Shown piece by piece: positions 33,667-45,640 of a stretch of DNA of 64,000 bases. Below the pieces are notes generated by a model. The model did not search any database and had not been told where the DNA came from. It saw only the letters and a program-made list of their open reading frames with translations. Numbering within the stretch: the first letter of the stretch is position 1; each line of letters opens with the position of its first letter. This DNA is from Spinacia oleracea (lineage: Eukaryota; Streptophyta; Magnoliopsida; Caryophyllales; Amaranthaceae): the NCBI RefSeq assembly GCF_020520425.1, contig NC_079491.1, positions 7,427,143 to 7,491,142 of the forward strand, written 5' to 3'. The position numbers and the translations under genes are program-made.

Positions 33667-33675
33667 TTTTTTTTA

Positions 33676-33840
33676 AGGAAATTTTGTGCAGCACTACCTT
33701 TAAGTTTGGACGTTTTGTGAATTACTACCTTATAAATTTTTTTAAAATTTTTTCTACCTTATAAGTTTGTTTAGGTTGAGTAACACTACCTTGTAACAGT
33801 TTCTGTCAAATTCCTCCGTTTGTGGGCCCCACCTCCAACG
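33676..33840 (+). repeat. Left terminal inverted repeat of the MULE
   Basis: About 164 bp with the inner border CCCCACCTCCAACG. The repeat contains spaced copies of ACTACCTTATAA-like words (CACTACCTTTAAG, TTACTACCTTATAA, CTACCTTATAAG, CACTACCTTGTAAC). These could be transposase binding sites. It also serves as upstream region of the mudrA gene. Confidence 0.9.
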
Positions 33841-34580
33841 TTTCCCTCCATTTTCAGAATCAAAATTACCCCTATGTCCCCCCATTTACTTTCCCACCAA
33901 CTTCTATCTTCTCCTTTCTCTTTCCTCTGTCATTTTTCTTTTCCTCTGCTTTGACATTTATTCTTCTCTCCTTCAATCTCAACCACAAACCCTAAAGCCA
34001 TAATTGATGATGCTACACTTCTGAATCTTCTTCAAGTCAAGAGATTCTTCTCTTTCTTACGCGCAGTGGTCCAAAATGAGATCTTGGAAAGATGAAAACG
34101 ACAGGAAGTGGTCCAAAGGATAAGGGAAAGGGGATAATGCCAACGAACCGACAAGGTGGATCCCAAATCAGGTATTAAACAGTTAAAACAATGCGATTTT
34201 AGTAGTTTAATGTGATATTATTGGTTAATTAGTTGTTTAATTAGGAATCCCTAATTTTTTAATTGCACTGTGAAATTTTGAATAAAAAACCCTAATTTTT
34301 TATTGTCATTGAAATCCACGAATTCATTGTTTAATGTTGTTGGAAACCTTAATATGATTGTTTAAATGATTGTTTAATGTGAATAATGATTAATTGATTG
34401 TTTAATTGAAAAACCCCTGATTTTTTAATGTCTAGGGTTTCTGGATTGGGTTTCTGGATTAGTGTTGTGAAATAATTGTTTATTATTGGAAAAATTAGAT
34501 TAGTATAACTGATTAGTTTATTAGTTTACAGTGATTACATGTGGTTACTTTTTTGTTCGTGTTGTGTAACCAAGTCGAAC

Positions 34581-34609
34581 ACTTGGACACGTACCCGAGT
34601 CGGGACTTG
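34581..34609. repeat. Short repeat shared by two mudrA introns
   Basis: ACTTGGACACGTACCCGAGT followed by CGGGACTT occurs here in the first intron and again, identical, at 37555-37582 in the fourth exon-to-exon gap. A diverged copy adjoins it in each place. The core CCCGAGTCGGG is an inverted repeat. Confidence 0.8.
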
Positions 34610-37178
34610 GACATGTACTCGATTTGGGATTTTTTTAATTTTTTGTAATCACTGTTGATTTGCAGTTAATTTTTTTTTGGTAATTAAAATTGTAGGAATG
34701 AGCAGTTGGGTTACATTGATCTTGCAATATGGATGGGGGAAAAGTTTATTTTCAACAAGGGGGAAACTGATTATGTTGGTGGGAAGTTGTATACTAGATT
34801 GACAGTGTGGTTGCATGAGTTAACTGTTTTTAGTTTGAGGGAGCTTGTAATGAAAGGGATGAGTGGAACTATAGGGAGGATTATTGAGAATTTCAGTGTA
34901 TGGTTTAGGCTACATGGGATGAATTTGACTAAGGGTAGGAAGATTATACACACTCATGATGATATAGGGAGGTTATTGGAGACAAAAGATGGGTCTAACA
35001 GGGTGATTTTGTACATTATTGAGGAATCCAAACCAGCTTCTATTGGCCCATCTGTTACCTACCAAACTGCCAACTTTAAACCACCAAGACCACTGAAACA
35101 AGCTACACAAAGCAATCCTTCTGGGCCACAAAGAACACTGACCCAGCCCATTACAACCAAACCTGCTGGCCCATCAACAGTGACCCTAAAACAAGTGAAA
35201 ATGGAACCACTTCAGTCAAAGTTTTCCCCAGTTAGGAGAAGCCCAAGGCTTGGTTTTGATCCAGATGTGATTTACATGGGAAAGGGTACAGGGCCAAGTG
35301 AGAATCCATCCACTGTAAAAGAACCCAACAAAACCCAATTAAAAAAGCCAATTGCTTCAGCCACTGTCAAAGCAAGTGTTCCTAAACCTATTCCCTCAAA
35401 TATATCTTCAGTTGATCCTCACACTCCAAGTACAGAACCAACAAAAATCCCTCCTCATACTACCACCACTCCCACAAAACCTTCAAAAACACCTCTGCCT
35501 GCAAACCCACCTCTTCTTAGTCCAGATTTGAAGACCTCTACCCCTAGGAGAAAGAGTGTAGCACAGAAGGGGAAAAAGGTCAAAGGAAAAGCAGGAAAAG
35601 TAGGGAAGAAGAAGGGGAAAAGAAAGAAAAAGGATCCTGGGGACTGTTTATTTGAAAATGATGAGTTTGGTGATTGGTCTGAAAGTGATTCAGACTTTTC
35701 AGATTTAGATGTGGAATTTGAACCAGGGGAAGAGGACAGAAAACAACTAGAGGAGGATGAGTTGTTCTGTGAGCCATTGTCTACTGTGTTGAGGGGAAAT
35801 AAGAGGGTAGATAAGGTTGCAGCACCTGAGGTGGAGGTAGATAGGGTGGCAGTACCTGAGAGTAAGGTAGAGAACCAGGAAGAGAAAGTAAATGAGGAGG
35901 CAGGAGGGCAGTCTAGGCCATCAATTGTAGAAGAACAAGTGGATCTAGAACATGAGGTGGATTATGATTCAGAGGAGCTTAGAAGTCTTTGTGGTTCTGA
36001 TGATGAAGTAGATCCATACCCTACCTTTAATCCAGAGTCAGACTTCAAGAAAAAGATTGTGCTCAGTTTGGGTTTGAAGTTACCGAGTGTTCATGCTGTT
36101 AGGAAAGCGATAAGGTATCATTCGATCGAGAACCACTACGATTACTACCTTCTTCATAATGGAAGGAAGAGGGTGAGTGTGTATTGTAGGTATAGATGTA
36201 GTTGTCCATGGGATAAAAAGCATGCAAAGCTTGTAAAGTGTGTGTGTGATGATCCACATAAGTGTAGGTTTAAGATTCATGTGAAGAAACTAAGGATGGA
36301 AGAAACGTTTCAGATCAAGTCGTTAAGGTTAAAGCATACTTGTGGTGTGGTTCATTCAAGTTCTAAAATCACATCGGAGTGGTTAGCTGAGAAGTATTTG
36401 GAGGAGTGGAGGTCAGAACCATATTGGAGGCTTGTTAAGTTTAGGGAAAGGGTTTACAAGGAAACGGGGCTACATATTGGATACTACAAGTCATGGTTTG
36501 CTAGGGCTAGAGCCAAATTGATTCTGTATGGGGATGCTGCAGATGAGTATGCTGCTGTGTATGACTATGGGTATGCAATTCTTCAATACAATCCTGGTTC
36601 TTCAGCCTATGTACAATGCCAGATTAGAGACAACCCCACTCCGTTCTTTCAAAGATTGTATGTTTGTTTTGAGGCTCTCAAAGTGGGTTTTAAGAGTGGA
36701 TGTAGGCCCCTAATTGGAGTAGATGGTTGTCACCTTAAAGGGGCTCATCCAGGAATGATCTTAGTGGCTGTGAGCAAAGATGGAAATACAATATTTTCCC
36801 CGTAGCTTGGGCAGTGGTGGAAGTTGAGAATGCTGACAGTTGGACATGGTTTCTTGATTTGCTGATGAAGGACATAGGACACCATGACGGAGAAGGATTG
36901 ACTCTTATGTCTGATAGGCAAAAGGTAATCTAGTTTTATTCTTTTGTTCAATGAGGTACAGTTTCTGGATGGTTTACTAACCTTGTGTTTCTGTTTATTG
37001 TTTCAATTCAGGGACTATTGGATGCTATATCTGTTGTGAGTTCAAAAGCCGAGGTCAGATTTTGTGCTAGACACATATGGGCTAACTTCAAGAATAAATT
37101 CAGTGGCACAGCCTATAAGGACCTGTTTTGGGCAGCAGCAAGATCAACAACTAAGGTTTGCTATTCTTCAACTTGGTT

Positions 37179-37500
37179 GCATTTAGGCTTTCATGTTAGA
37201 AATCGACTCGTATTCTTAGATTTAGTAGCATTTAGGCTTTCATGTTAGAAATCGACTCGTATTCTTAGATTTAGTTGCATTTAGGCTTTCATGTTAGAAA
37301 TCGACTCGTATTCTTAGATTTAGTTGCATTTAGGATTTCATGTTAGAAATCGACTCGTATTCTTAGATTTGGCGGCACTTGTGATTTTATTTTAGAAATC
37401 GACTCGTGTTCTTAAATTTGGTTGCACTTGTGATTTTATTTTAGAAATCGACTCGTATTCTTAAATTTGGTTGCACTTGTGATTTTATTTTAAAAGCATG
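37179..37500. repeat. 49-bp tandem repeat in a mudrA intron
   Basis: Six to seven units beginning GCATTTAGGCTTTCATGTTA recur every 49 bp (37179, 37228, 37277, 37326, 37375 and on). The first four are nearly identical, and later ones drift (GCACTTGTGATTTTATTTTA). The array fills most of the intron between the catalytic-domain exons. Confidence 0.9.
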
Positions 37501-38905
37501 TGTGTTTAGGGTAGAAAAGTAAAGCATGCTTCTTGGACACGTTCCCGAATCGTGACTTGGACACGTACCCGAGTCGGGACTTAATCGCACTAAATGTATA
37601 AATGTATAGCATTTGTTATTGTTTGTTGATGTCATCCTTGTTTTTGTTTGTTAAATGTATAGCATTGGCATGATTCTTACATGGCTGAAATCAAAGAGCT
37701 AAACGAGGATGCATATAACTACTTGAGTGGCATACCTCCTGTGCATTGGTGTAGACATGCATTTGGATCGAATTCTAGGTCTAACATGTTGCTCAACAAC
37801 TTTTGTGAGACATTTAATGCTGTGATAAGGGAAGCTAGGGATAAACCAATAATAACCTGCCTAGATTGGATTAGGAGGTACGTAATGAGAAGGAATGCTG
37901 AGAAGTGGGAGGGTATTCAAAAGTATGAGGGGAGGTTTATGCCATTTGTTGAGAAGGTTTTAGCTTGGGTTTATGAAGCATCTTTGAATTGTATAGTCTG
38001 TCCTTCTAGATTAGATGAGTGGGAGGTGGAAACTGCTTTTGATAGGCATGTGGTAGATTTGAAGGAGTTGACATGCACATGCTTTAGGTGGGAGTTAACG
38101 GGAATACCATGTCCACATGCTTATGCATGTATTGTGAAGAAGAGGTGGAGGCCTGAAGATTTTGTTCATGAGTGTTACTCAAAGGCCAAATACTTAGCAA
38201 CTTACTCGCCTCATATCAAGCCAATGCCCGGGATGAAGCAGTGGAAGAAAACAGATTTGCCTCGACCTTTGCCTCCACTGTTAAGGAAAATGCCAAGAAG
38301 GCCTAAGTCACATAAGAGAAAGAAAGAAGCAGGTGAGGATGCTGAGGAGAGGTTTGTGAAGCGAGGGAAAAAGCCGAATAACTGCTCAAACTGTAAACAA
38401 CCAGGCCACAACAAGAGAAAATGCAATAATCCACCTGGTGTTATTCAGCCCAAGGAACCAGGGAGGGATCCCTCCAAGAACCCATGGGTTGTTGCTGACA
38501 GAAACAAGAGGGCTGCAAGAGTTTTAAGGGTGAGTTTTTGTCATGTATTTACATTGTTTCTGTTGTTTAGAGCTGAATCTGTTTCTGTGTTTCTGTTGTC
38601 ATTAACAATATGTGTTTCTGTTGTGTATGCAGAGGTATAATGCTGAATCAGTCACTCAACCACAGCAACAAAACTCAAGTGCATCTACCATGCAACAGAC
38701 ATTTAATGCTCCACCTCAATCCAGTCAGACAGGGAGTTATCAACCTCCTCCACTCAGTCAGACCTCAAGTCAGCAACCAGGTCAGACAGCAAGTCAGCAT
38801 CCAGGTCCATCCAGCCAAACATCAACTCATCAGCCTCAAACATCACTCCCTCCAAAACTCAGACCCAAATTGCAGACAACAAAGAAACCAGTGTGGCATA
38901 TTTAA

Positions 38906-39467
38906 GTATTGTTGGTTGTAATTCCTTTGAACAAGTAGTTAAGGTTTCTAATTAGCAACAAGGTTACATTTTGGCAATGACAATTCTAATTAGGTGCAAG
39001 GTTTACATTGTAACACTGTGTAAAGATTCATTTGCCCCTTAATTATATTTGACGTTCGAGCTCGGCTCACGCGTGGCTCGTTTCAGTTAACTGCAGGTTT
39101 AACAAGTTGTTGTTCTTGTTGTTCACTTGTTGAATTGTTGTTATGAATATATGATGTTCAGGTGTGGTTCATTTGAGAAAAATTTGTCCTCCATTTAAAC
39201 TAAGTCAATGGACCAAAGTTGACTCCCGTTGACTTCAAGGACTTTACCTAATTTATAGATTTATCCTCTGTGGTGAATGATAGGTGAAACGAGCACGTAT
39301 ACTAACCAAGTTTTAATCGGTACACAAATAATCGAACACAAGTTAATGCAAAAAGATATTGTCAAAAGCTAGAATTACCATTATTAAATGATTAGAGTCA
39401 ACTAATGGCAACAACATTACATTACATTACATGAAATCCAATTTCCCGTTCCATTGTCGCGTTTACA
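38906..39467. other. Gap between the two convergent MULE genes
   Basis: Non-coding DNA holding both 3' UTRs. It has an ATTAC pentamer run near 39415-39430 and a GC-richer patch near 39052-39085 (CGTTCGAGCTCGGCTCACGC). No further gene is seen. Confidence 0.5.
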
Positions 39468-39917
39468 CTAGAGGAACTTCATTACAAACTTCAACACACA
39501 ACAAACAACTAATCCCACAACAAACCAAAATACAGAATGGGCAATTTCTTGGCCCTTATCCTTTGTCCCCTTCATTCCAGCCACTCCACCATTGCATATC
39601 CTTTCAAGCCTCTCATTGGCAGCAACAAGAAGGGCTTTGTCATCCTCCAACTTCTGCAATTCTATCATCATGACCCTCAACTTTGTTTTCAGCAATCTCT
39701 TCTCCACCACCAATTCATTCGTCACGACTCTTTGCCACTCCACAACATCAGGATCAACCCAATAAAACCAACCACATCCTTTCCTACCAGTGTGTACATC
39801 AGAGAACTTACAAGTCAGGAATTTTCTCCCCGGGTTATCAGTTGTCCACGATGTCAACATCTTGGATGGAATGCCACAATAACATTTTTTTGAAGCACAA
39901 GGAGACCCACTCGACAT
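39468..39917 (-). CDS. GRF zinc-finger membrane-tail protein, second gene of the MULE
   Basis: A frame of 149 residues. Near the N-terminus is a GRF-type zinc finger: CYCG at about residue 12, CKFSD about 24 residues later, then KGCGWFYWVD. A Leu/Glu/Lys-rich coiled coil follows (residues about 70-115), and a hydrophobic C-terminal segment, SVFWFVVGLVVCCVLKF, ends the protein. GRF fingers bind single-stranded or flapped nucleic acid in topoisomerase III, APE2 and NEIL3. Small plant proteins with a GRF finger and a C-terminal tail anchor are common but uncharacterised. The start ATG follows an acceptor (ACTGTTGCAG) directly. The matching donor (AAAGGTGAGT) lies at 45305 near the right terminal repeat, which defines a leader intron now holding the LINE. 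The gene is intact, converges on mudrA and sits where mudrB lies in maize MuDR. A role in transposition is inference. Confidence 0.75.
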   Translation of the reverse strand: MSSGSPCASKKCYCGIPSKMLTSWTTDNPGRKFLTCKFSDVHTGRKGCGWFYWVDPDVVEWQRVVTNELVVEKRLLKTKLRVMMIELQKLEDDKALLVAANERLERICNGGVAGMKGTKDKGQEIAHSVFWFVVGLVVCCVLKFVMKFL

Positions 39918-40235
39918 CCTGCAACAGTTAAAACAACTAATTATTAGTATTTGTTTTATCAATCAAAAACCCCCAAATTGCAAATAACGATCAAAATTGA
40001 AATTTTAAACCACGAATACCCACATTTTTAGTCAATTCAAGAACCCAATTTTGCAATGTAGTTGTTTTCACATGACAATTTTTTTTTTTTTTTTTTTTTT
40101 TGGCAAATAAAAAATTTATTAACCAAAAGGAAAGAGCAACAACTCAAATATTACAAGCACCAGAACAACTGGAGCACTAGTTCCCCAACAGGAACAAAAC
40201 AGAACCACCTAGACTAGAACCTGACAGCAACAGGC

Positions 40236-43200
40236 CTAATACAGCAACAAAGCAATGTCTGAATCTCTACATCTGCAAGCAACCTTAAACACAATTTCTT
40301 TAACAATTTGCTCAGCTGATTGAACATGACCAGCAAAGACTCTTTGATTCCTTTGAATCCACAGGCAATAGACTGCTTCAGCAAAACCAGCAAGGAGAAG
40401 TTTGCTCACAGCAGTGCATTTTTTACTCATCCTCGTAGCAAATTGGAGCTCCTGATCAAAAGCTTGGCTGCTCCTATTGATATTCAGAATCTGCAGGAAT
40501 TTCTGCCAGACTTGTCTAGCATAAGAACACTGAAAGAACAAGTGCTGCACTGATTCTGGATCAACACCACATAAACTGCAAACACCATCAGTAACTATGC
40601 CCCACTGCAAGAGTCTGTATTTGGTAGAAAGCCTCCCATGAACAGCAAGCCACAAAATGAAAAGACTCTTAGGGCTAGCAAAGTTATTACAAACCACTCT
40701 CCTCCACTGAACTTTAGGAAACTGACCCAACAAACATAGGTACATCTTCTTGATAGAGTAACCACCAGTAGCAAAAAACAGTTGCTTGCACATAGGATCC
40801 CTTTCCAGCAAATCTCTACACCCCCAAATCTTCTTAAGAACCCAGGAAGCAGAACCTGGCAGAGCCATGGTGAACAAATCCTTGCCCTTGATATAGTATG
40901 CATTGACCCATTTAACCCATAGAGCATCAGGTTTGAAAGCCAAAGCCCACAAAAGCTTCAGAATAGCAGCTTTGTTCCAAAGATAGAAGTTTTTCACATT
41001 TTGCCCACCAGCAACTCTAGGTTTACACACTGAATCCCAAGCAATGGGAGATTTCCTAGAGGTTTTGGTGTCACCAGTCCACAGACAGGTCCTACAAATT
41101 CTTTCTATCTCTCTGAGAACCTTTTTTGGGAGCATAAATATTTGGCTCCAGTAGGTTTGAAGGCTAAACAAGATCACCTTCACCAACTGTAACCTTCCAG
41201 CATAGGACAATTTCTTAGCAACCCAAGAAGAAACTCTAGAGTAGAATTTATCAATGAGAGGTTTACACTGGTTAATGGTAAGTTTGGCACTAGAAAGTGG
41301 AACTCCTAAGTATTTAAAAGGAAGACTGCCTTTAGAAATACCAAGAGAAACCATAATTGCATCTTGTTCCCACTGAGGAACACCAGAAAAATAGATCTCA
41401 GTTTTCTCCATATTAGCTTCCAACCCAGAAGCTTGAGAAAAACAGGAAAAAGCTTTAAACATAAGCTGCAGGGAGATAATGTCACCTCTAGCAAAAAGCA
41501 ACAAATCATCTGCAAACATGAGATGAGTGAGCTTGATCTTCTCACATTTAGGATGATAATTGAAATCAGGATTGGTAGCCAAGTTCTTCATACATCTACT
41601 CAGATACTCCATGCAAATGGCAAACAAGAAAGGAGAGAGAGGGTCCCCTTGTCGAAGGCCTTTCTTTGCAGGAAAAGGCAGCATAGGTTTGCTATTAACA
41701 AGAATTGAATAGCTCACAGAAGTAACACAGGGGTGCACCCACTGAATGAACTGCCCAGGGAAGCCAAGCTCCTGTAACACCATGAAGAGAAAAGGTCATT
41801 CAACAGAATCATATGCTTTTCTCAAATCTACCTTAACCATACACCTAGGGGACATATGAGCCCTATTATATCCCCTAATCAGCTCAGTTGCAACAATAAT
41901 GTTATCAGATATGTTCCTACCTGGCACAAAACCAGCTTGATATTCAGAAACCACTTCAGACACCACCCTTTGAAGCCTAGCAGTCAAGATTTTAGAAATA
42001 ATCTTGTACATGGTAGAACAACAAGCAATGGGCCTAAACTGAGCAACAGAAGTAGGACATGGGACTTTAGGGACCAAAGTCACTGCAGTACAGTTAAACT
42101 TGCCATACAAAAAACCAGAATCAAAGAAATCCATCACTGCTCTATAAATATCATGTTTTATAATAGGCCAACCTTTCTTAAAAAAGAATGAGTTGAAACC
42201 ATCCAAACCTGGGGCTTTGGAAGAGTCAATGCTAGCCAAAGCATCATCAATTTCACCTACAGTAACAGGCAAGCAAAGCAAAGCTCTAGAATCAGAAGAT
42301 AAGACATTTCCATTTCTGATAGTAGGCACATCCAAGCCAGGCAGAGAAGAAGCAGCTGAACCCAGAAGCTGTTTATAGAAATCAATGATCTTGGACTGAA
42401 TCTCAGTAAGATCAGTGATCTCCACTCCCCCATCTCCATGAAGCAGATGCACTTTATTTATACAGAATCTCTCTTTCATAGCAGAGTAAAAGAACTGGTG
42501 GTTAGAATCTCCCACTGTAACCCACTGAACCCTAGACTTCTGCTTAAGAGCTTGTTCTTCAATAGCTAACCACTTTCTGAGATTGCAAATAAGCTCTTTT
42601 TCAGTACTAAGCAAGTGAGGACTGTTATCACTCCTCATCTGAGTTTGCAGATTGTCTAACTCACTTCTATAATACTCAATTTTCTCAGCTGTATGAGAAA
42701 ACTCCTCCTTATGTAAAACCTTTAGCTTGTGCTTAACTCTATTCAGCTTAAACCAGATTTGAGCCATTGGTCTACCCCTATCCTCACTATTCCAACACTC
42801 ACCCACAATATTCTCAAAAGAGGAGTGATCTGCTAAATAGTTCAAAAATTTGAAAGGTCTCCCACCAGAAGAAGGGTTAGTAATGCAAGGAATGATAATA
42901 GGAGAATGATCAGATAAGGAAGGATTCAAGTATTTAGTAGACAACTCAGAAAAAGAGTCCATCCACTTCATGTTTCCAAATGCCCTGTCAATCCTGCTCC
43001 ATACTCTAGGGTCATCTGTACCCTTGCTAGACCAAGAAAAAAACCATCCAGTGCTATGCAGTTCATTTAGGTCACGTACAATCTGAATTACATTGATTAA
43101 AATCCCTAGTTTCTGCATTACTCACAGCATTTCCATTAATTCTATCCCCAGAATAAAGAATAGAATTGAAGTCACCAGCAACCAGCCAAGGACTAGCTGA

Positions 43201-43612
43201 ACTGCTAGTACTCAGATGGTTCAACTCATCCCACAAAGCTTGCCTATGCCCAACACTATGCAAGCCATAAACAGCAGTAAAGAAAGAAGAAAATTTATGG
43301 TCCTTAGTGTGGATCCAACAATGAACTTTTTGAGAGGAACTACTAAGAATCTGTAAGTCCACATCAGCAGTCCTCCAACCAACCCATATTCTACCTTTTG
43401 GAGAGTGAGGATAGTTGCAGAACCAAGTCCACACCCCCCCCCCCCCCCCCCCCCCCCCCAAATCTCTTCTGAACCTTCTCCTTATTTCCAAGCCTTACTC
43501 TTGTTTCTAATAAAGCTACTACATGAATACTATGATTATTAAGGAACCTCCTAACTTCATTAGCTTTGAGAGGCTCATTAAGCCCTCTTATGTTCCAAGT
43601 ACAGATATTCAT
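40236..43612 (-). pseudogene. LINE ORF2: endonuclease, reverse transcriptase, zf-RVT
   Basis: The frame opens with NICTWNIRGLNEPLK, the start of an apurinic-type endonuclease, whose later motifs are LLETRV, VAGDFNSILYSGDR and SDHSPIIIP. Reverse transcriptase follows with KAPGLDGFNSFFF, FRPIACCSTMYKIISKILTA, YQAGFVPGRNISDN, MVKVDLRKAYDSVE, GLRQGDPLSPFLFAICMEYL and the catalytic LMFADDLLLFARGD. The C-terminal part has the zf-RVT motif (FILWLAVHGRLSTK, CSLCGVDPESVQHLFFQC). Breaks: a frame change at a long G run (plus-strand C run near 43434-43459), another near 43075-43100, and one TGA in place of the Trp codon after AYDSVE (41796-41798). The start codon overlaps the ORF1 stop. Confidence 0.9.
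43434..43459. repeat. Homopolymer C run inside LINE ORF2
   Basis: About 26 consecutive C residues (G on the coding strand) sit in the endonuclease domain and coincide with one of the ORF2 frame changes. Length errors or replication slippage are both likely. Confidence 0.85.
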
Positions 43613-45045
43613 GGATTAGGAGGATCTTTTCCAGAACCAACTACCCCATTCCCAACATTCTCATCTCCCTCACAATCAGATAAGTCCTCATCAGACTCTT
43701 GTTCCAACACAGCAAAAGAGTTCTCTACTCCCACAGCTGTACCACCTCCCTTGCTCTGAGTCTTCCTGGTAACAACCTTCCATCCAGTGTTTGAGTCTGG
43801 AGTAGGAAGACCTTGATTACAAGGAGTGACAACTTGAGCAGCAGCAGTAACAGGGTTCACTGGTTGAACCTTCTTTGGCACCCATACTCTCTTAGGTTTC
43901 CCAACCTGTTGAGGTTTCACAAGAGTTGTCTTAGCACAGTCATGCCCCACCTTGTTGCAGGATTTACAAAAGGGGGGAGTCCAATCATAAACAACCTGTT
44001 GTTTCATCAGTTTACCTAGCTCATCTTCTATCCAGACACAATCAGGCAATGCCAAAGTGACATCCATTTCGATTAAAACCCTGGCAAAAGAGATTCTGTC
44101 CTGTCTAGTTGTGCAAGCATCAGCAAATAAAGGAACACCCAAGCTGCTACCTATCCTACTCAACGAGTCAGAACTCCAACAATTGAGAGGAAGATTAGGG
44201 AACTTCACCCAAATGGGAATCACCCTAAGAATTTCTTCACAGAAATCAAAGTTTGCCTTCCATGGCTTAATAATCATGGCCTTGCCAAAGAAGAGGTGTG
44301 GACCATCTGCTAACACTGCATTCTTATCATCCATAGACATGAATTTCACCACAAAATATCCATCATCATGAAGAAAAATCTTAGGCATTCTCACATAAGA
44401 CCAATTTGCAGCAACATACTTAGACAAAGAAGCTATAGTAGGGGTATATCCTACAACATACAACACAATAGATTGCTGCCAGTGCTTATTCAATTTATCC
44501 AATTCTGAGGGTTGCAACTTAATCACTTTCTTTCCATCCTTAATAACAGGAGCAATAAAAGAGAGAGGAACTCCTTTACCTGCAAGTTTCGACCCTGCAA
44601 CAACAGAGGACCACGACGGAGGCTTCTCAGGTTGTTCCATCTCCAATCTCCGATTAACTGGAGCATGCTGACCAGAAGCTCTCTGATACTCCGCAATCAC
44701 CTCAAGCAACTCACGAGTGACAGGTCCAGTACTTGGATGAGGAAGGAATTTTGGATCTATATTAGAGGTATCAACAATCTCCTCCCCTCTAGCTTGATTC
44801 TCAATACTACGTTCAAGAGAAAGAGCTACTCTCCTTATGCGTGCCGCTGTTGTCTCCTGTAACATCTCCATAGAAGAAGCAGCTTGAAATCCAGTTGAAG
44901 GGGGAAACCCAGAATTCAACCCAGAGGTCGAGCTCAGACCCCCAACCCCTCTCATGGCATTATTCGACCGATTTTGATTACCAGAAGAAGATGACAAACC
45001 TTCCTGATTAGTTTTGTTAGAGTGAAGCTTCTTCCTCCCTCCCAT
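43609..45045 (-). CDS. LINE ORF1 nucleic-acid-binding protein
   Basis: An intact frame of 478 residues. The N-terminal 180 residues are Ser/Gly-rich and likely disordered. About 185-330 correspond to the DUF4283 fold found in plant LINE ORF1 proteins (IVLYVVGYTPTIASLSKYVA, WKANFDFCEEILRVIPIWVK). Residues 360-370 (CKSCNKVGHDC) are a zinc-knuckle-like motif whose last Cys is closer to the His than in the usual CX2CX4HX4C. The tail is Val/Asp/Glu-rich. The stop codon TGA overlaps the ORF2 start as ATGA. ORF1 proteins coat the LINE RNA and act as chaperones. Confidence 0.88.
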   Translation of the reverse strand: MGGRKKLHSNKTNQEGLSSSSGNQNRSNNAMRGVGGLSSTSGLNSGFPPSTGFQAASSMEMLQETTAARIRRVALSLERSIENQARGEEIVDTSNIDPKFLPHPSTGPVTRELLEVIAEYQRASGQHAPVNRRLEMEQPEKPPSWSSVVAGSKLAGKGVPLSFIAPVIKDGKKVIKLQPSELDKLNKHWQQSIVLYVVGYTPTIASLSKYVAANWSYVRMPKIFLHDDGYFVVKFMSMDDKNAVLADGPHLFFGKAMIIKPWKANFDFCEEILRVIPIWVKFPNLPLNCWSSDSLSRIGSSLGVPLFADACTTRQDRISFARVLIEMDVTLALPDCVWIEDELGKLMKQQVVYDWTPPFCKSCNKVGHDCAKTTLVKPQQVGKPKRVWVPKKVQPVNPVTAAAQVVTPCNQGLPTPDSNTGWKVVTRKTQSKGGGTAVGVENSFAVLEQESDEDLSDCEGDENVGNGVVGSGKDPPNP

Positions 45046-45467
45046 TAATGGCGAAACGGTTCACGGTAGCTGAACACCCTAAACGTGCGCCGAGAGCATT
45101 TCTTGAGAGAGAAGAAAACCTTTTCTTTAATTTTCGTAATTATTGTGAGTACATGTTAGTTTTGGTTCACATGACAATTCAAAGGTTTCAAACGCTAAAA
45201 TTATCAAAAGGATTCGAATTTAATAAAATTGAACAAGAACAAAAACCCTAAATTGAAAAAATAAACCCAGAAATTGAAGAACAAGAACGAATTTAATGCA
45301 CTCACCTTTAGGTTACTCGATTCCTCAACCAAATTGCGAATCTTGCTTTGAGAAAAAAATTACCCAGATTTCTTGATTTTTTTTCGAAAAATTGGTTGAA
45401 TGTGGTTGATAAAACTTTACAGGAAGTTTAAATAAGGGGGAAAGGGAGTTAAGCACTTGAATATAGC

Positions 45468-45631
45468 CGTTGGAGGTGGGGCCCACAAACGGAGGAATTT
45501 GACAGAAACTGTTACAAGGTAGTGTTACTCAACCTAAACAAACTTATAAGGTAGAAAAATTAAAAAAAAAAATTATAAGGTAGTAATTCACAAAACGTCC
45601 AAACTTAAAGGTAGTGTTGCACAAAATTTCC
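45468..45631 (-). repeat. Right terminal inverted repeat of the MULE
   Basis: This is the inverse of 33677-33840 with only a few differences. It lies immediately upstream of the inferred first exon of the GRF gene and therefore probably contains that gene's promoter. Confidence 0.9.
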
Positions 45632-45640
45632 TTTTTTTTA

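What the first reader, a model, noticed from the sequence alone, without database searches (positions are those of the whole stretch)
33676..45631. Two-gene MULE with a GRF zinc-finger gene in the mudrB position
The element has nearly identical 164-bp ends, a 9-bp target duplication and a mudrA-type transposase. It also has a second, intact, convergently transcribed gene for a GRF-finger/coiled-coil/tail-anchored protein. Maize MuDR has the same two-gene convergent layout, but its mudrB product is unrelated. A GRF finger, known to bind flapped or single-stranded DNA, could assist excision or end joining. The pairing is seen; the joint function is inference.
Basis: partly seen in the sequence, partly recalled or inferred. 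Interest (0 to 1): 0.78.

Follow-up and report, generated by a model that had tools for sequence, protein, structure and literature searches.

The report
GRF zinc-finger gene carried by MULEs
A plant DNA transposon of the Mutator superfamily carries, opposite its transposase, a small zinc-finger gene with a membrane-tail-like end, and the same gene pair recurs in many distinct transposon families of this genome, so it looks like a long-standing transposon gene rather than a one-off capture of a host gene.

Summary
Confirmed and extended. Window 33676-45631 is a two-gene MULE: 165-bp TIRs (159/165 identical), a mudrA-type transposase and a convergent 149-aa GRF-finger gene. A LINE (about 40081-45165) inflates it to 12 kb; sisters are 6.4-6.9 kb. 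The window transposase frame is broken; the GRF frame is open. The GRF gene is present in 18 of 20 fetched copies, shows purifying selection where there is power (dN/dS 0.19-0.20), and recurs beside transposases only 32-57% identical. Intersecting search coordinates, 190 of 307 GRF sites have a MULE transposase within 8 kb, 189 convergent; random placement of 264 sites gave mean 2.3, maximum 9. Three families have it near 26 of 27, 9 of 9 and 57 of 58 transposases, within 30 kb. Against universality: 147 of 150 top PF10551 hits and 8 of 8 relatives of one family's transposase have no listed GRF site nearby; 117 of 307 GRF sites are unpaired. I found no paper pairing the two (open-licence library). 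Function is inference: perhaps a membrane-anchored helper that binds exposed DNA ends.

The parts
33667..33675 (.). left copy of the 9-bp target duplication (border ambiguous by one base)
   Evidence: sequence; scored as 9-bp duplication
33676..33840 (+). left terminal inverted repeat, 165 bp
34688..36805 (+). mudrA-type transposase, 5' frame with DBD_Tnp_Mut at about 36059-36214; frame ends at 36805, where the window is one base shorter than all 18 relatives that align at 36760-36835
37113..37504 (+). 49-bp minisatellite (six overlapping 147-nt copies, step 49) in an inferred transposase intron
   Evidence: intron is inference from reading the sequence
37663..38640 (+). transposase, 3' frame with SWIM finger at about 38047-38127
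39468..39917 (-). second gene: 149-aa GRF-finger protein, open frame, convergent with the transposase
39753..39887 (-). GRF zinc finger (residues 11-55, PF06839)
39480..39536 (-). hydrophobic C-terminal stretch (residues 128-146; best 19-residue mean hydropathy 2.44), possible membrane anchor
   Evidence: helix 122-148 in the model
40081..45165 (-). LINE insertion (RVT_1, zf-RVT and DUF4283 frames) between the GRF gene and the right repeat, with 14-bp duplications at 40067-40080 and 45166-45179; not part of the MULE proper
45468..45632 (-). right terminal inverted repeat (last base shared with the duplication, border ambiguous by one)
45632..45640 (.). right copy of the 9-bp target duplication
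   Evidence: sequence

Best explanation
The GRF gene is a resident, inherited second gene of a large group of MULEs in this plant genome, not a one-off host capture (shown: recurrence, fixed orientation, selection). It sits where mudrB sits in maize MuDR, reading inward from the far terminal repeat towards the transposase. Inferred mechanism: a small helper protein made by the element. The GRF ribbon binds single-stranded, flapped or broken DNA; the long helix pairs the protein with itself or with the transposase; the hydrophobic tail anchors it to a membrane (ER or nuclear envelope). It would act after transposase cleavage, holding or protecting ends for insertion, as MURB is reported to be needed for insertion in maize. 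The confidence given is for the first part (resident, selected second gene). I give the DNA-end-binding helper mechanism about 0.35 and membrane anchoring about 0.5.
For: GRF gene and transposase present in 18 of 20 fetched copies. Purifying selection in three informative pairs: dN/dS 0.19-0.20 at dS 0.12-0.14, synonymous excess P 0.0003-0.0013, against 0.32-0.50 for the transposase block in the same pairs. Two further families read directly, L059 and L060, have the convergent GRF gene beside transposases about 52% and 32-34% identical, with Pfam support (L059's GRF is under the curated cut-off at 22.1 bits). 190 of 307 GRF sites have a transposase within 8 kb, 189 convergent. Per family within 30 kb: 26 of 27, 57 of 58, 9 of 9, and 20 of the next 28. 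Same architecture in three proteins 30-41% identical to the first: finger cysteines kept, hydrophobic end. [quoted passage not shown]
Against: 117 of 307 GRF sites have no listed transposase within 8 kb; 147 of 150 top PF10551 hits, 8 of 8 transposases 52-61% identical to that of L060, and 10 of 10 that I chose from a 721-750-aa group have no listed GRF site nearby, so the gene is not needed by every MULE. Lists are capped at about 150 rows, and most transposase queries came from GRF-bearing elements. Copies of one family are not independent. Some pairs with few synonymous changes give dN/dS near or above 1 (L046-L051 1.17, L051-L052 0.83, window-L053 0.79), and between near-identical copies the test has no power (P 0.20). 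In barley, authors suggest the convergent ORFR of Abermu may be unimportant for transposition, since rice Abermu without it seems recently active (PMC9168764, section 23). No DNA binding, interaction or location was tested.
Confidence: 0.88

Rival explanations
1. One-off or recent capture: an ordinary host GRF gene was picked up by this MULE family and copied along as a passenger (Pack-MULE-like).
For: MULEs are known to capture host genes (PMC6446971, passage). Some related transposase lineages lack a listed GRF site.
Against: The same gene in the same orientation occurs in families whose transposases are 32-57% identical to this one; the frame is selected; the elements also carry transposase, unlike Pack-MULEs.
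Confidence: 0.04
2. Repeated independent capture: several MULE families separately took up members of one host GRF gene family, always in the convergent position.
For: The gene is patchy across transposase lineages. The Abermu authors raise independent acquisition of ORFRs as one possibility (PMC9168764, section 23).
Against: 189 of 190 paired sites share one orientation, and GRF and transposase frame lengths pair off family by family in the tables (grouping by eye). Three proteins share finger and hydrophobic end.
Confidence: 0.1
3. Anti-silencing or regulatory gene: the GRF protein acts on the element's own chromatin or transcription, as VANC of Hiun does, not in the cut-and-paste reaction.
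For: An anti-silencing extra ORF exists in another MULE (PMC6446971, passage). A DNA-binding finger would serve this role too.
Against: A hydrophobic tail is odd for a chromatin protein. No direct evidence either way.
Confidence: 0.25
4. Membrane-side host effector: the protein acts at the ER or nuclear envelope on host factors (for example repair or traffic), and the finger binds protein or RNA.
For: Strongly hydrophobic C-terminus kept in the three diverged proteins examined.
Against: No localisation or partner data; GRF fingers with known roles mostly bind nucleic acid (PMC9266487, passages).
Confidence: 0.15

Closest known systems
Maize MuDR (mudrA + mudrB)
   Same: Two genes in opposite directions between long TIRs, 9-bp duplication, transposase with DBD and SWIM. 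Layout of MuDR and the need for MURB in insertion as stated in PMC9168764 (passages; section 23).
   Different: The second protein here has a GRF finger. Whether MURB is a very distant relative was not tested: no MURB sequence is held.
Abermu family MULEs (barley and other plants)
   Same: Transposase ORF1 plus an opposite-strand ORFR between ORF1 and the 3' TIR in type II elements; 9-bp duplications; Ka/Ks of ORFR below 1 (PMC9168764, sections 15 and 16).
   Different: ORFR is reported as unknown, with no similarity between distant plants or to MURB (sections 16, 23); the passages and sections I saw name no GRF finger. Here one recognisable gene family fills the position in many families of one genome.
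MULEs with antisense PMD, mutB (Mutyl), vanB/vanC (Hiun/VANDAL)
   Same: Extra genes beside the transposase, some antisense (PMC6446971, passages).
   Different: Different protein families; the paper's text holds no 'GRF' (listing).
GRF fingers of NEIL3 and APE2
   Same: PF06839 ribbon; NEIL3 fingers are the relevant GRF hit by sequence, by Foldseek and by VIA-align.

Membership tests
Mutator-like element (MULE) | long terminal inverted repeats | tested here: met
   165-bp arms, 159/165
Mutator-like element (MULE) | 8-11-bp target duplication | tested here: met
   perfect 9 bp in 12 of 18 two-ended relatives; in the window exact only with a one-base border shift
Mutator-like element (MULE) | mudrA-type transposase domains | tested here: met
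   DBD_Tnp_Mut and SWIM in the window; PF10551 not hit in the broken window copy but present in related L059 and L060 frames
MuDR-type two-gene MULE | second gene convergent with the transposase inside the same TIRs | tested here: met
MuDR-type two-gene MULE | second protein homologous to MURB | not testable with these tools
   no MURB sequence in the collections held
GRF zinc-finger (PF06839) proteins | match to PF06839 above the curated cut-off | tested here: met
   31.6 bits against 25.9; L060 29.1; L059 22.1, under the cut-off
GRF zinc-finger (PF06839) proteins | binding of single-stranded or forked DNA | not testable with these tools
   known for NEIL3 fingers (PMC9266487, passages); needs an assay here
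Tail-anchored membrane protein | single hydrophobic stretch at the very C-terminus | tested here: met
   best 19-residue hydropathy 2.44-2.76, ending 1-5 residues from the C-terminus in three diverged proteins; sequence feature only, membrane insertion not tested
Pack-MULE (host-gene capture, non-autonomous) | lacks transposase and carries host gene fragments | tested here: not met
   both transposase parts found in 18 of 20 fetched copies; frames of up to 726 aa in sisters
Abermu | sequence identity to Hvu_Abermu | not testable with these tools
   no barley sequence held; paper sections only

The most novel reading that the evidence does not exclude
A GRF-finger, membrane-tailed helper is an ancient core gene of a major branch of plant MULEs, functionally equivalent to mudrB, and many of the small 'GRF zinc finger' genes annotated in plant genomes are transposon-borne or transposon-derived. 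If the tail is a real anchor, these transposons bring a membrane-tethered DNA-end-binding protein to transposition, a new kind of helper for a DNA transposon.
Probability: 0.3. Interest if true: 0.82.

Novelty: new variant of a known kind. Interest (0 to 1): 0.64.

Why it matters
Two-gene MULEs have been known since MuDR, but the second genes described looked unrelated to each other and to known proteins; a 2022 study of Abermu leaves open whether the convergent ORFRs share one ancestor and what they do (PMC9168764, section 23). Here one recognisable gene with a testable DNA-binding domain holds that position across many diverged families of a single genome, under selection. That turns an ORF of unknown function into a protein that can be expressed, assayed and removed. 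It also bears on annotation: plant studies list 'GRF zinc finger' genes among ordinary genes, for example among transcription factors in switchgrass (PMC5206262, passages) and among differentially methylated protein-coding genes in peanut (PMC6293580, passages); whether those are transposon genes I could not test.

Tried and rejected
I tested the association instead by intersecting coordinates of separate genome searches, with random placement as control. GRF relatives in IMG/VR viral contigs and in GTDB genomes: none confirmed. PDB by sequence: 25 sequences at E up to 10, best E 0.44 (NEIL3), none significant. PDB by fold: no Foldseek match at E <= 0.001; NEIL3 GRF fingers among weak matches; the higher Z rows match the long helix only. 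A heptad test of the helix was not significant: 1988, 1181 and 840 of 5000 shuffles reached the observed value for window, L059 and L060, and the L060 segment was not cut at the homologous start.

Papers: searches gave no paper describing a GRF finger beside a MULE transposase. The ones holding both kinds of word that I opened use them apart: in PMC8774480 'GRF' is a repeat-finding program; PMC11734081 lists the two domains in different NLR proteins; in PMC10250235 'mudr' is part of an author's name. The other listings I did not open, seven of the nine among them. The library is open-licence PMC only; subscription papers, preprints and repeat libraries such as Repbase are not covered.

Rejected: one-off host capture; 12 kb as the native size of the element (it holds a LINE). 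A GRF tree against a transposase tree was not attempted, because DNA of only three families was in hand.

Full report
What is there. The window lies in an 894-Mb genome of 242 contigs, evidently a plant; the size and six large contigs would fit spinach, but that is recall, not a test. At 33676-45631 there is a MULE with 165-bp terminal inverted repeats, 159/165 identical. Its 9-bp duplication is a T-run ending in A and is ambiguous by one base. The family settles the point: a perfect 9-bp duplication was scored in 12 of 18 relatives with two mapped ends; the six without are L011, L015, L018, L020, L025 and L027, of which L018 and L025 have a right end that aligns only in part. In seven of the 18 the two repeats are identical over 164-165 ungapped columns (L013, L014, L015, L017, L023, L024, L026), which points to recent movement.

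The two genes. The transposase frames at 34688-36805 and 37663-38640 carry DBD_Tnp_Mut and SWIM; between them I infer introns, one holding a 49-bp repeat array. The window copy's frame ends at 36805: all 18 relatives that align at 36760-36835 show a one-base gap against it, and sister copies have frames of up to 726 aa, some longer ones with stops. The second gene, 39468-39917 on the minus strand, encodes 149 aa with a GRF finger (PF06839, E 1.8e-7). It reads inward from the right repeat, convergent with the transposase. A LINE with DUF4283, reverse-transcriptase and zf-RVT frames lies between the GRF gene and the right repeat, at about 40081-45165, with a 14-bp duplication. That explains the 12-kb span; two-ended relatives measure 6357-6861 bp.

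Is the second gene part of the element? Of 20 fetched relatives, 18 hold the GRF gene and both transposase parts in the same arrangement. The two others are L021, where only one repeat was found, and L028, whose transposase is interrupted within the fetched stretch and whose nearest GRF site lies 15 kb from it. The frame is under selection where there is power to see it: window against the copies in L019/L046, L011/L044 and L022/L051 gives dN/dS 0.19-0.20 at dS 0.12-0.14, with a synonymous excess of P 0.0003-0.0013. The transposase block in the same pairs gives 0.32-0.50. Against this: near-identical copies give no power (P 0.20), and some pairs with few synonymous differences give ratios near or above 1 (L046-L051 1.17; L051-L052 0.83; window-L053 0.79).

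Is it wider than this family? The GRF protein finds 34 rows of its own family and 116 rows at 35-52% identity, 150 being the cap. Two distant elements were read. L059 has a transposase about 52% identical in its DBD/catalytic part and a convergent GRF protein (44% over 118 aa). L060 has 162-bp inverted repeats (93%), a 919-aa transposase frame 32-34% identical, and a convergent GRF protein (34% over 101 aa). L060's frame has DBD_Tnp_Mut, MULE and SWIM; L059's GRF scores 22.1 bits, under the curated cut-off of 25.9. In L059 a copia-like frame follows, and the pair of repeats of that element was not identified.

Coordinates. With GRF sites (264 after merging) and transposase sites (514 after merging), 170 GRF sites have a transposase within 8 kb, 169 of them convergent and one on the same strand; random placement of 264 sites gave mean 2.3, maximum 9 in 500 trials. 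With one search added: 190 of 307, 189 convergent. Starting from the Pfam DBD profile alone, 69 of 150 transposases have a convergent GRF site within 5 kb and one a same-strand site. By family, within 30 kb to allow for nested insertions: window family 26 of 27 (24 within 8 kb), L060 family 57 of 58 (54 within 8 kb), L059 family 9 of 9 (8 within 4 kb), and 20 of the next 28 transposases, which are 64-90% identical to that of L059. In the tables the frame lengths pair off in about a dozen groups (my grouping by eye: for example GRF 154 aa with transposase 708, 153 with 787, 156 with 720, 133 with 763, 146-152 with 919).

Limits of that count. Copies of one family are not independent. Each search lists about 150 rows, so counts are lower bounds, and apart from the two Pfam profiles the transposase queries came from GRF-bearing elements. 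117 of 307 GRF sites have no listed transposase within 8 kb. The gene is confined to some lineages: a listed GRF site is near only 3 of 150 top PF10551 hits (2 of 150 before one search was added), 0 of 8 transposases 52-61% identical to that of L060, and 0 of 10 that I picked from a 721-750-aa group. Those lineages either lost the gene, never had it, or have one too diverged to be listed.

How it probably works. Shown: a selected, resident second gene of MULEs in the mudrB position. [quoted passage not shown] Known for the position: MURB is reported to be needed for insertion in maize (PMC9168764, section 23). Inferred: the GRF protein binds exposed ends or flaps made during transposition and helps insertion or end processing, perhaps from a membrane anchor. 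Rivals are an anti-silencing role like that of VANC (PMC6446971, passage) and action on the host at membranes; nothing here separates them. [quoted passage not shown]

Known or new. Two-gene MULEs are known. A survey lists mudrB, mutB, vanB/vanC and antisense PMD as extra ORFs (PMC6446971, passages), and its text holds no 'GRF' (listing). Abermu elements have a convergent ORFR of unknown function without similarity to MURB or between distant plants (PMC9168764, sections 15, 16 and 23). Searches joining GRF-finger terms with MULE, MuDR or Mutator terms found no paper that describes the pair. The library is open-licence PMC only, and curated repeat libraries may hold such elements without comment. 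I therefore call it a new variant of a known kind.

Noticed in passing
window 40067-45179: A LINE (DUF4283, reverse transcriptase, zf-RVT frames, minus strand, poly-T on the + strand) nested in the MULE with a 14-bp target duplication.
   Followed up: partly
window 37113-37504: A 49-bp minisatellite inside an inferred transposase intron.
   Followed up: no
G000:C4:117771172-117776313: Three GRF frames in a row on one strand, 75-79% identical to that of L060, about 2.4 kb apart, with no listed MULE transposase nearby: tandem elements or a host-retained array.
   Followed up: no
G000, for example C1:46797218, C3:53020935, C5:54856474, C5:91528494, C5:92558516, C5:121043171, C6:30263199: A group of GRF frames mostly of 127 aa, matching the finger region, with no listed transposase nearby; possible non-autonomous elements or host genes.
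   Followed up: no
L011, L020, L027 (G000 contigs C1, C40, C102): Element copies in L020 and L027 share flanking bases with L011 in reverse orientation, so the small contigs are probably alternative assemblies or duplicates of one locus and not independent insertions.
   Followed up: no
G000: transposases at C1:132113727, C4:16257638, C3:95555671, C6:122987687, C1:103821434, C4:49311056, C1:70351413, C6:137471155: Relatives (52-61%) of the L060 transposase with no listed GRF site within 12 kb; a place to ask whether the gene was lost or replaced.
   Followed up: partly
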